64,000 bases of DNA from Pseudanabaena sp. Chao 1811. Its GTDB lineage: Bacteria; Cyanobacteriota; Cyanobacteriia; Pseudanabaenales; Pseudanabaenaceae. This document shows, piece after piece, positions 49,999-55,351 of this stretch. Positions within the stretch are counted from its first letter, which is position 1, and every line of letters begins with the position of its first letter. Both the position numbers and the translations under genes were made by a program. The stretch covers positions 1,697,501 to 1,761,500 of the forward strand of contig NZ_CP101416.1 of NCBI RefSeq assembly GCF_027942295.1, written 5' to 3'. The notes under the pieces were generated by a model, which saw only the letters and a list, made by a program, of their open reading frames with translations, was not told the DNA's origin and ran no database searches.

Positions 49999-51153
49999 TT
50001 AGTTACGAATTTGAACAGGCATGAGCAGATATGTCATTTTAGTTGCCCCAATTGGCACAAGCACCGCAGGACTGGTGGGGTTATTGAGCTGAATTTGAAT
50101 TTCATTACTAGGCAAAGCCTTTAAGCCGTCTAGCAAATATTTGACGTTAAAGGCGATTTCCACATCTTCACCCGAAATCTGCGCTGGCAAAGACTCACGC
50201 CCTGCGGCAACGTCTGGAGCTTCAACAGACAGAGAAATTTCCTGACCTGTCGAGTCAATTGTAATTTTGACAATGTTGTTTTTTTGGTCAGCGAGTACAG
50301 CAATCCGTTCAAGGGCTGACAGAAACAATTTGCGCTCAACCGTAACTTGACGCTCAAAGCGATTGGGGATCAACTGGCGATAGTTGGGGTAAGTGCCGTC
50401 TAGCAATCTCGAAATCAAGATTTGATTCGCACTTTGGAAAATCATGTTGGCACGGTCGAACTTAACCGCGATCGCCCCTTCGGTCTGTTGATTGAGCATT
50501 CTTTCTAGCTCCCGCAAAGCTCTGGCGGGGATCGTCACTTCCAAACTAGTGGATACGGTATCACCCGTCACAGGTGGCTCATCGGCATCGAGAAAACCTG
50601 TCTGGACTACGGACAAGCGATGTCCATCAGTTGCAGCAAACTCAAGGCGATCGGCACTAGCCGTCAAATGCACCCCAGTCAGAATCCGCTTAGTTTCATC
50701 GGCTGAAGTCGCAAACAGGGTCGAGGCTAAACCACTGAGCATCGATTCCACAGGCAAGTAGGTAGTTTCACCATCTTCACCAATTTGGGGCAATTCGGGA
50801 AACTCTTCCACAGGTAGACCATGCATTTGGTAGCGACCTGAACCACAGACGATCGACACCATCGTGTTGTCTTTGTCTACGCTGATAGTGATGTCCTCAT
50901 CGGGTAGACGGGAAACAATGTCGTTGAGCAGCTTTGCAGGCAGGGTAATCGATCCCGCCTCTACCACTTGGGCAGGAAAAGAAACCTGAATCCCCAGATT
51001 GAGATCAAAGGCAGTCATACCAAGGCTTTGGCTAGAGCTATCGGCATCCAGTCGAATATTTGCCAAGATGGGGTGTGTGGGGCGAGACGCGACAGCACGA
51101 CCGACAAGGGCAAGATTAGCAGCGAGTTGGTTTTGAGGGCAGACTAGTCGCAT
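49999..51153 (-). CDS. dnaN: DNA polymerase III beta subunit (sliding clamp)
   Basis: The 384-residue clamp is built from three DNA-clamp domains. Landmarks: MRLVCPQNQLAANLALVGRAV, RPTHPILANIRLDA, the block FATSADETKRILTGVHL, ATDGHRLSVVQT, and the C-terminal YLLMPVQIRN (family MPMRL-like end). It encircles DNA and tethers the polymerase; many partners bind its clamp groove. It lies directly beside the candidate replication origin and is transcribed away from it, an arrangement known in several cyanobacteria. Confidence 0.97.
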   Translation of the reverse strand: MRLVCPQNQLAANLALVGRAVASRPTHPILANIRLDADSSSQSLGMTAFDLNLGIQVSFPAQVVEAGSITLPAKLLNDIVSRLPDEDITISVDKDNTMVSIVCGSGRYQMHGLPVEEFPELPQIGEDGETTYLPVESMLSGLASTLFATSADETKRILTGVHLTASADRLEFAATDGHRLSVVQTGFLDADEPPVTGDTVSTSLEVTIPARALRELERMLNQQTEGAIAVKFDRANMIFQSANQILISRLLDGTYPNYRQLIPNRFERQVTVERKLFLSALERIAVLADQKNNIVKITIDSTGQEISLSVEAPDVAAGRESLPAQISGEDVEIAFNVKYLLDGLKALPSNEIQIQLNNPTSPAVLVPIGATKMTYLLMPVQIRN

Positions 51154-51480
51154 AGTTTGAGGGCAAAGTTTGTCTAAACTGTTTGGAAAACAATGGGATT
51201 ATGGCTAATTCTTGAACTAAAAGGCAATAAGGCTGTTGTGTAAATGCCTTGTTTGAGAGTTAGTTTGGTACTTGTTTGAATTTTTAAAAATTGAGGAGAT
51301 AGCTCATGTGGAAAAGTCGAGAAGGTTTCAAAGATTTTGAGGACTTAATGAAGTCTTAACAGAAATCTGAAAAAATGGCAAAACTGAAAAAATGTATTTG
51401 AGCAATTTAAAAATTTAGGAAAAAACTTTAAAGCGAACATGTTGAGCTAAAGCTCTTTAGTTTTTTAATTTGTGGAAGCT
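51154..51480. other. Region between dnaN and the origin
   Basis: AT-rich and without a long ORF. It holds the dnaN promoter, one outlying DnaA-box (51307-51315, TGTGGAAAA) and a 17-codon ORF with a good ribosome site, listed separately. Confidence 0.5.
51306..51359 (+). CDS. Possible 17-residue micro-ORF
   Basis: ATG at 51306 is preceded by GAGGAG (51293-51298) at seven-base spacing and reads MWKSREGFKDFEDLMKS to TAA at 51357. The peptide is charged and amphipathic. The start codon overlaps a DnaA-box-like sequence. It could be a real small protein, a regulatory leader or chance; there is no conservation evidence. Confidence 0.3.
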   Translation: MWKSREGFKDFEDLMKS

Positions 51481-51489
51481 AATCATAAC

Positions 51490-51810
51490 ATCGTTGGAAA
51501 TTTTTATACGTTGAAAATAAAATTTTATTTTTCGTTAATTTTTCGTTCGATCTAATTATTACTATTCAAGAATAAATAAATTTATTAATAGTAGTAGTAG
51601 GGGCTGTGGAAAATGTGGAAAACTTTAAAAATAGTATATCTAATCGGCTCTCTAGGGATTTTTGCCTGTGGAAAAACCTGTGGAAAAAGTGGCTAGTTTT
51701 CCACAGAGTATAAATACTTATTAAAAGTTTTCCACATTTATACCTAAGTTATCCACAGATTTAGCCAAGTTATCCACAAAAGATTTTGAGTTTTCCACAG
51801 GTTTTCCACA
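51490..51810. other. oriC: Candidate chromosomal replication origin (oriC)
   Basis: Ten exact TT(A/T)TCCACA-type DnaA-boxes. Four point left (51605, 51614, 51667, 51679, seen as TGTGGAAAA) and six point right (51697, 51728, 51749, 51770, 51791, 51802). Four right-pointing boxes are spaced exactly 21 bp, the last 11 bp. An AT-rich stretch (about 51510-51588) is followed by four TAG triplets (51589-51600), GGGC and the first box, matching the DnaA-trio/GC/box layout of basal unwinding systems. Adjacent to dnaN. Confidence 0.9.
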
Positions 51811-53399: not shown

Positions 53400-53768
53400 A
53401 TGGCACCTTACTCACTAGATCTCAGAGAAAAGATCGTAGCAAACTACGAAGCAGGAAATACATCGATTCGGGAAGTAGCGAAGCAATTTCAAGTCGCGAC
53501 GAAAACAGTGCAAAAACTACTGAATCAATACCGAGAGACAGGAGAACTAAACCACAAACCATTAGGTAGTCCAATCAAAAGTCCCCTCGAAGCGCATCAG
53601 GAGAAAATCCTCGAAATTGTCTCAGAGCATCCAGATTGGACACTATGGCAGTACTGTGAAGAAGTAGCAGAACAAACAGGAGTATCAGTGACCACAGGCA
53701 GCATGTGCCGATTTTTCCAGAGGCATAACATCACTCTAAAAAAAAGACCTATCGCCATGAAAAGGTAA
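53400..53768 (+). CDS. IS630-type transposase, N-terminal helix-turn-helix ORF
   Basis: The 122-residue product has paired HTH domains (YSLDLREKIVANYEAGNTS; VAKQFQVATKTVQKLLNQYRETG) and an NITLKKRP end. The run of eight A's (53738-53745) before G lets ribosomes slip to the -1 frame, where KKKTYRHEKVKS continues into the catalytic domain. This is the standard programmed-frameshift plan of such elements. It follows the left inverted repeat by about 40 bases. Confidence 0.87.
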   Translation: MAPYSLDLREKIVANYEAGNTSIREVAKQFQVATKTVQKLLNQYRETGELNHKPLGSPIKSPLEAHQEKILEIVSEHPDWTLWQYCEEVAEQTGVSVTTGSMCRFFQRHNITLKKRPIAMKR

Positions 53769-54092
53769 AAAGTGAGGCAGTACAACAGCAAAGATGTGAA
53801 TTTTGGGAAGCATTGAATGAAGTGAAAGCTGAAGATCTGATTTGTATTGATGAAACGGGAGTATGGCAGGGGATGGAACGCTCTGTGGCAAGAAGTGAAT
53901 GTGGCAAAAGAGTATTCAGTCTTCGTCCCTTTTACAAAGGTCAGAAATACACAATAATTGGCGCTATTTCAGTTGATGGGATTGTTTGCCTGAAAACGAT
54001 TCAGGGTTCTATGAAAGGAGCAGATTTTCTCACCTTTGTCCAAGATGACCTAGTACCTAAATTACGTCCTGAGCATAGGATCATCATGGATA
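53738..54092 (+). pseudogene. IS630-type transposase catalytic half, interrupted (5' part)
   Basis: In the -1 frame from the A-run, the product reads through FWEALNEVKAEDLICIDETGVWQGM (first catalytic Asp) and SMKGADFLTFVQDDL to HRIIMDN (second Asp), then breaks at the nested IS. The rest is at 55352-55607. The gene cannot make active transposase unless the nested element is removed. Confidence 0.85.
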
Positions 54093-55351
54093 ACTGAGAA
54101 CTTGCACCATTCTGGAAAGGGGTTGCAAAGAGAGTAAAGATGTGAAAAAAAGGGCGTAGTAGTAAATTAAATAACGATTATGGAAAGCATCGTTAAGCAC
54201 GCCCAAGGTTTAGTGTATAGCCTAATTTGTCTGATGCCAAGTGTGTATCAAAAAGCAAGTCTGAATGCAATATTAGGGCTATTTCTGGAAGCGCAAGGGC
54301 ATCCCTATCCAGAACATACACAGGTAAAATCAGCGAGTGCATTAAGCCGATTTCTCAATCACTATAACTGGTCAACAAGAGGACTAATTCGAGCAACAAG
54401 GCTGTCAATTTTGGGGCAAATCGCCAAGCATCGCCCATCGAAGAGAGTGCCATTAAAGATACTGATAGACCTGACCACCTTAGAAAAAAGCGGCAAGTTT
54501 TTACATTTGAGCAATCCCACCCCAAACGAACCAGACCCATGGGTGAGAATCCTCAACGGAAAGCGAGGACTACATCTGGTTGTACTGTATCTGGTCTATG
54601 GAGAGTGGCGCGTACCATGGAGTTTTAGAGTATGGCGCGGCAAAGGATACTCCAGTCCCTCTGACTTAGCTTGTAAGTTATTGGGGACAGTACCCAAGCA
54701 ACTAACCCAAGGCAAGACTGTGATTGTCCTTGCTGATACTGAGTTTAGTACGGTGAAGTTTTTCAATGCTGTCCGCGCCAAGTCTTGGCGCATCGTTGTC
54801 GGTGTCCGCAACAATCGTAAACTTCAAGATGGACGTACCGTCAAACAACTTTATCCCCATGGCAAACGTGGACAACTAATTTTACTGGAAGGGCTAAGTA
54901 CGCCTTTGACGATCTCTTGGTTCTGGCTCAAAAGAGCCGATAGTAAACGGGAGTTACGCTTTGTGGTCTCTTCTCATCCTTATTCTGGCGCTTATCTGGT
55001 GATGTTAGGTCGTAAGCGTTGGGCGATTGAGGGATTCTTCAAAACCATCAAACATCGCTTTGGTTTGCATTGTTTTGGGCAATCTACAAAACTTGGCGTT
55101 TATCGTTGGCTTATCCTCTCTCTGCTTTCTTATCTTTTGGCTCATTGGATTGATCAATGGTCGTTTCCTCCCATCTTGGACTGGAAAGCTACCTGTGATT
55201 TAACCCTTTCTGTTTTATTCCCTTCTGTCCTTTGGTTGAAACTTCTCAGGTATCTTCAAATTAGTGCCGATATTGCTGCTCGTCATGGCTTTGAAATTAT
55301 TCTCAAACCCATTCCCACTTGACTCTTTCACGAATGCTGCAAGATCTCAGT
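54093..55351 (+). mobile_element. Nested DDE insertion sequence (IS4/IS701-like superfamily)
   Basis: Inverted ends ACTGAGAACTTGCACCATTC and, reverse-complemented, ACTGAGATCTTGCAGCATTC match at most of 29 positions. Removing 54093-55351 with one TA copy rejoins GGATA and ACCTCAACTGCC into an open IS630 reading frame (DNLNCHKVEG). That fits a 2-bp TA duplication; other boundary choices by one or two bases are possible. Length about 1.26 kb with one intact gene. Confidence 0.82.
54180..55322 (+). CDS. DDE transposase of the nested element
   Basis: The 380-residue protein has LKILIDLTTLEKSG (first Asp), VIVLADTEFSTVKFFNAV (second Asp) and RWAIEGFFKTIKHRFGLHCFG (the Y/R-x-IE-x-F-K block with the catalytic Glu). 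This is the RNase H-fold arrangement of IS4-superfamily transposases; the exact family (IS4, IS701) cannot be set by eye. It is intact and starts about 87 bases inside the left end, so the element may be active. Confidence 0.88.
   Translation: MESIVKHAQGLVYSLICLMPSVYQKASLNAILGLFLEAQGHPYPEHTQVKSASALSRFLNHYNWSTRGLIRATRLSILGQIAKHRPSKRVPLKILIDLTTLEKSGKFLHLSNPTPNEPDPWVRILNGKRGLHLVVLYLVYGEWRVPWSFRVWRGKGYSSPSDLACKLLGTVPKQLTQGKTVIVLADTEFSTVKFFNAVRAKSWRIVVGVRNNRKLQDGRTVKQLYPHGKRGQLILLEGLSTPLTISWFWLKRADSKRELRFVVSSHPYSGAYLVMLGRKRWAIEGFFKTIKHRFGLHCFGQSTKLGVYRWLILSLLSYLLAHWIDQWSFPPILDWKATCDLTLSVLFPSVLWLKLLRYLQISADIAARHGFEIILKPIPT

What the first reader, a model, noticed from the sequence alone, without database searches (positions are those of the whole stretch)
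51490..51810. Textbook-quality oriC beside dnaN, with DnaA-trio and 21-bp phased DnaA-boxes
Ten exact DnaA-boxes in two converging groups, four right-pointing boxes at strict 21-bp spacing, an AT-rich stretch, then TAG x4, GGGC and a tandem pair of boxes. This matches the basal unwinding layout known from Bacillus. Several cyanobacteria are reported not to need DnaA, so an origin this elaborate is notable.
Basis: partly seen in the sequence, partly recalled or inferred. Interest (0 to 1): 0.72.

Follow-up and report, generated by a model that had tools for sequence, protein, structure and literature searches.

The report
Cyanobacterial oriC plus conserved DnaA-box array
The flagged stretch is a well-preserved but ordinary cyanobacterial replication origin; checking it uncovered a second DnaA-box array in front of an uncharacterised small gene (DUF2811) that is kept across almost the whole phylum and tends to disappear, gene and all, when dnaA is lost.

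Summary
Window 51605-51810 carries ten exact TTWTCCACA boxes (about 0.005 expected), four at strict 21-bp spacing, beside an 83% A+T stretch, TAGx4, GGGC and two tandem boxes, 450 bp from dnaN. It is chromosomal oriC of a Pseudanabaena (4.73 Mb, one contig; dnaA 1.3 Mb away). The layout is near-invariant in congeners, and the unwinding module recurs in other cyanobacterial orders. The S. elongatus module was already tested in vitro (PMC8287927), so this origin is a new member of a known kind. GC skew cannot decide: this chromosome has no significant V shape.

The surprise lies outside the window. A second box array (C1:70561-70623) sits upstream of DUF2811. In 101 of 110 DUF2811 loci (31 of 34 lineage groups) an exact box lies upstream, mostly helically phased; none lie downstream. 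Of 18 near-complete genomes lacking dnaA, 13 lack DUF2811, 2 have pseudogenes, 3 keep it with an eroded array; all 12 dnaA-bearing sisters keep it. Eight sisters have no exact boxes at dnaN; seven of these keep one at DUF2811. DUF2811 is thus the leading candidate for the unexplained job of DnaA in cyanobacteria that replicate without it. Binding and function are untested.

The parts
49999..51153 (-). dnaN (DNA polymerase III beta clamp), 384 aa
   Evidence: Pfam PF00712/PF02767/PF02768; 91-100% identical in congeners
51490..51588 (.). A+T-rich DNA unwinding element, 82.8% A+T
   Evidence: contains a stretch (CTAATTATTACT, about 51552-51563) conserved in the genus alignment
51589..51600 (+). 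DnaA-trios: TAGx4 on the plus strand (3'-GAT-5' repeats on the 5' side of the boxes), preceded by TAA at 51586-51588
   Evidence: near-invariant in the genus, recurrent across orders
51601..51604 (.). GGGC spacer between trios and boxes
   Evidence: same position in relatives
51605..51622 (-). Tandem DnaA boxes TTTTCCACA/TTTTCCACA (platform of the unwinding module)
   Evidence: invariant in the aligned genus members
51667..51687 (-). Two further left-pointing DnaA boxes (51667-51675, 51679-51687)
   Evidence: first one 53-54 bp from the second tandem box in the genus and in several other lineages
51697..51705 (+). First right-pointing DnaA box
51728..51799 (+). Four right-pointing DnaA boxes at strict 21-bp spacing (51728, 51749, 51770, 51791)
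   Evidence: in many congeners the second of the four is TTNTCCCCA in the same register
51802..51810 (+). Last right-pointing DnaA box, 11 bp after the previous one
51307..51315 (-). Isolated exact DnaA box in the dnaN upstream region, not generally conserved in the genus

Best explanation
The stretch is the DnaA-dependent chromosomal origin (oriC) of a Pseudanabaena. DnaA binds the ten boxes. From the tandem pair at 51605/51614, a DnaA filament extends leftward over the GGGC spacer onto the 3'-GAT-5' trios of the plus strand and opens the A+T-rich stretch for helicase loading. The right-pointing, helically phased row binds further DnaA on one face of the helix and probably sets the cooperativity of assembly. 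Shown here: sequence, layout, conservation, presence of dnaA. Inferred from S. elongatus and B. subtilis work: binding, filament growth, unwinding. The same genome carries a second conserved phased DnaA-box array upstream of DUF2811 (C1:70561-70623). It lacks trios and is most likely a DnaA-controlled regulatory or titration site rather than an origin.
For: Ten exact boxes against about 0.005 expected. One intact dnaA with its DnaA domains. Box positions, trios and spacer conserved in congeners while flanking sequence drifts. The trio-spacer-tandem-box module recurs in Leptolyngbya-like, Oculatellaceae and other lineages. No exact box upstream of dnaN in any of 16 dnaA-lacking genomes. The S. 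elongatus version unwinds in vitro only with boxes and trios present (PMC8287927).
Against: No GC-skew switch at this site: contrast 0.0025 against a best of 0.0132 elsewhere, itself not significant. No replication data. Some cyanobacteria start replication at many places without DnaA, and firing here is not shown. Boxes without function could linger, although near-invariance across the genus argues against that.
Confidence: 0.92

Rival explanations
1. The box array is retained for DnaA binding (titration or dnaN regulation), while replication starts elsewhere or at many sites, as in Synechocystis or Nostoc.
For: Irregular GC and CDS skew in this chromosome. In DnaA-independent cyanobacteria dnaA is still present (PMC7198777).
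Against: The trios and spacer, which a titration site would not need, are as conserved as the boxes. In lineages where the boxes at dnaN are gone, dnaA can stay, so dnaA alone does not hold this array in place.
Confidence: 0.07
2. The DUF2811-upstream array (C1:70561-70623) is a second replication origin.
For: Phased boxes next to an A+T-rich run conserved in the genus.
Against: No DnaA-trios or GC spacer seen; the A+T run is on the wrong side of the boxes for the known layout; the array stays tied to DUF2811 across the phylum, as a gene-control region would.
Confidence: 0.05

Closest known systems
Synechococcus elongatus PCC 7942 oriC beside dnaN
   Same: Next to dnaN, TTTTCCACA boxes (PMC4674748), unwinding module shown in vitro (PMC8287927), dnaA essential (PMC7198777)
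   Different: Its chromosome has a regular V-shaped GC skew; this one does not
Bacillus subtilis oriC basal unwinding system (DnaA boxes 6/7 plus DnaA-trios)
   Same: Tandem boxes, short GC-rich spacer, 3'-GAT-5' trios on the 5' side, A+T-rich stretch
   Different: Here the origin lies at dnaN, far from dnaA, and has an extra outward-pointing phased row of boxes
E. coli datA / DARS and B. subtilis DnaA-box clusters (comparison for the DUF2811 array)
   Same: Conserved DnaA-box clusters away from oriC
   Different: The cyanobacterial array stays attached to one gene family across the phylum, its main row of boxes points toward that gene, and gene and array tend to disappear when dnaA is lost

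Membership tests
Bacterial oriC with basal unwinding system | At least three DnaA-trio motifs within 16 bp of a DnaA box (criterion of PMC8287927) | tested here: met
   TAGx4 lies 4 bp from the first box
Bacterial oriC with basal unwinding system | Cluster of DnaA boxes beyond chance | tested here: met
   10 exact boxes in 206 bp, about 0.005 expected
Bacterial oriC with basal unwinding system | A+T-rich unwinding element next to the trios | tested here: met
   82.8% A+T over 99 bp
Bacterial oriC with basal unwinding system | DnaA encoded in the genome | tested here: met
   Single intact dnaA matching DnaA_N, Bac_DnaA and Bac_DnaA_C
Bacterial oriC with basal unwinding system | Origin at a GC-skew switch | tested here: inconclusive
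   No significant two-phase skew in this chromosome, sampled at one third
Bacterial oriC with basal unwinding system | Replication initiates there in vivo | not testable with these tools
   Needs marker-frequency sequencing or origin mapping
datA/DARS-type DnaA control site (DUF2811 array) | DnaA-box cluster away from oriC, conserved | tested here: met
   101 of 110 DUF2811 loci with an exact upstream box; 31 of 34 lineage groups
datA/DARS-type DnaA control site (DUF2811 array) | Changes the nucleotide state of DnaA or titrates it | not testable with these tools
   Biochemistry needed; no binding data for this locus in the papers found

The most novel reading that the evidence does not exclude
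Cyanobacteria share a second conserved DnaA target besides oriC: a helically phased box array upstream of DUF2811, through which DnaA controls that small protein. This link outlives origin function (boxes at dnaN gone, array kept), erodes when dnaA is lost, and is a reason why cyanobacteria that replicate without DnaA still keep dnaA. DUF2811 would be a previously unrecognised partner of DnaA in cell-cycle or replication control. Shown: the array, its phasing, its link to DUF2811 and the repeated co-loss. Inferred: DnaA binding, direction of regulation, role of DUF2811.
Probability: 0.6. Interest if true: 0.85.

Novelty: new member of a known kind. Interest (0 to 1): 0.62.

Why it matters
As an origin, the window locus is a clean extra example showing that the unwinding module is old and widespread in cyanobacteria. 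The larger value is what it led to. A 2020 study states that the function of DnaA in cyanobacteria that replicate without it 'remains unclear' (PMC7198777). The DUF2811 array supplies a specific, testable target: conserved across the phylum, kept after the dnaN-side boxes have gone, and co-lost with dnaA in several lineages. It also gives a first functional lead for a protein family with no paper in the library searched.

Tried and rejected
Box groups at C1:1490362 and C1:1654563-1654841 lie inside coding frames and look like chance. Rfam gave nothing above gathering scores at the DUF2811 array. AlphaFold2 models of DUF2811 were poor (pLDDT 60 and 65); the PDB fold search with the first gave no match with E below 0.001, and a sequence search against solved structures found nothing convincing. 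I suspected a ribbon-helix-helix fold from the sequence, but nothing supports it. A blastn search of plasmids with the origin gave only a short, 9% coverage match to a Buchnera plasmid, which was not followed.

Full report
OBSERVATION. The plus strand reads A+T-rich DNA (51490-51588, 82.8% A+T), TAGx4 (51589-51600), GGGC, then two tandem TGTGGAAAA boxes at 51605 and 51614, two more left-pointing boxes at 51667 and 51679, and six right-pointing boxes at 51697, 51728, 51749, 51770, 51791 and 51802. All ten are exact TTWTCCACA. The genome has 126 such sites in 4,729,581 bases, so about 0.005 are expected in 206 bp. Four boxes are 21 bp apart.

CONTEXT. The window is C1:1697501-1761500 of a single-contig genome. 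dnaN starts 450 bp from the first tandem box. dnaA is a single intact gene at C1:3066109, 1.3 Mb away. Named relatives with 91-98% identical DnaN are Pseudanabaena species.

CONSERVATION. In the congeners fetched the same box positions recur upstream of dnaN. In the 18 rows that aligned directly (the window's own genome included), trios, spacer and tandem boxes are almost invariant while the surroundings drift. Among 80 named dnaN loci (10 close relatives and 70 others), 37 keep a 52-54 bp step between left-pointing boxes and 24 matched a strict trio pattern; most Nostocaceae in that sample have no exact box within 2 kb of dnaN. A looser rule finds the trio-spacer-box module in 37 of the 80; a few of those matches are probably spurious.

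MECHANISM. The arrangement meets the published definition of a basal unwinding system. S. elongatus DnaA opens its own version in vitro only when boxes and trios are both present (PMC8287927). I therefore read the window locus as oriC. Binding, filament growth and strand opening here are inferred.

GC SKEW. Eighty 20-kb stretches, about a third of the chromosome, show no significant V (best contrast 0.0132 at 1.32 Mb; 50 of 500 shuffles do as well; 0.0025 at oriC). Irregular skew is common in cyanobacteria (PMC7198777), so this neither supports nor refutes the origin.

A SECOND ARRAY. A search for paired boxes showed one other dense cluster: four boxes at C1:70561-70623, spaced 21, 21 and 12 bp. 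It is conserved in most genomes of the genus, in the gap between an NfeD-like gene and a small gene of family DUF2811, PF10929. DUF2811 was found in 115 of 116 cyanobacterial genomes sampled and, among 14 control genomes, only in S. elongatus.

PHYLUM-WIDE LINK. Of 110 DUF2811 loci, 101 have at least one exact box pointing toward the gene within 1 kb upstream, 75 have two or more, and 69 have a pair 19-23 bp apart. By lineage group, 31 of 34 have one (two of the 34 are other genera of the window's own family). Spacings cluster at 11, 21-22, 33, 43-44 and 54 bp, and an inverted TGTGGA/TGGGGA site sits 44-45 bp after the last box in many families. Box density is 2.58 per kb upstream, 0 in 78.7 kb downstream, and 0.03 per kb downstream of dnaN.

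CO-LOSS WITH dnaA. Of 390 genomes at least 95% complete, 18 lack the DnaA C-terminal domain. Of these, 13 lack DUF2811, 2 have broken copies (G384, G311) and 3 keep it (G165, G331, G371); all 12 dnaA-bearing sisters chosen from the same families have it. In the three that keep it the array is eroded: 0, 1 and 1 box. A Fisher test gives 1.5e-16 but ignores shared ancestry and pools two searches. On a dnaN tree of 28 rows the dnaA label needs 8 changes, 7 forced by well-supported branches, which fits several independent losses.

THE ARRAY OUTLIVES THE dnaN-SIDE BOXES. None of 16 dnaA-lacking genomes with a dnaN locus has an exact box in the stretch inspected upstream of dnaN (about 1.5 kb; 868 bp in one). 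Eight of 11 dnaA-bearing sisters also have none there, yet seven of those eight keep at least one exact box at DUF2811. A moved origin in those eight was not excluded. This bears on the stated open question of what DnaA does in cyanobacteria that replicate without it (PMC7198777). In the literature searched, DnaA ChIP in S. elongatus was by qPCR at oriC and one control gene (PMC6478999; PMC7198777), and no paper mentions DUF2811. Most subscription papers are not held, so prior description elsewhere cannot be excluded.

A THIRD, NARROWER CLUSTER. Three boxes lie downstream of guaA in 11 of 30 loci inspected, in some families only; none was seen at guaA in this genome.

LIMITS. Box counts are exact matches. 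Absence of dnaA or DUF2811 is absence of an HMM hit. DUF2811 has no confident fold, so its activity is open. I did not test whether DnaA binds the array.

Noticed in passing
Outside the window: G000 C1:70561-70623 (L013:10561-10623): Phased DnaA-box array upstream of DUF2811; near phylum-wide in cyanobacteria and co-lost with dnaA.
   Followed up: yes
L283, L293-L301; L409-L413, L425, L427, L434-L436, L438: Three phased DnaA boxes downstream of guaA, pointing back at guaA, in some cyanobacterial families with varying neighbours on the other side. Possibly a titration site.
   Followed up: partly
window about 51552-51563: A stretch CTAATTATTACT inside the A+T-rich part of oriC is conserved in the genus; role unknown.
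   Followed up: no
window 53400-55322: Insertion-sequence genes about 1.6 kb from oriC: an IS630-type transposase start (53400-53768), a possible continuation in another frame (53813-54097), and a DDE transposase (54180-55322).
   Followed up: partly
G051 (99% complete, dnaA present): The only genome of the 116 sampled with no DUF2811 hit although dnaA is present; may be an assembly gap.
   Followed up: no
L189, L190, L195, L202, L203, L205, L208, L209, L211, L213, L214 and others: Most Nostocaceae sampled have no exact DnaA box within 2 kb upstream of dnaN.
   Followed up: no
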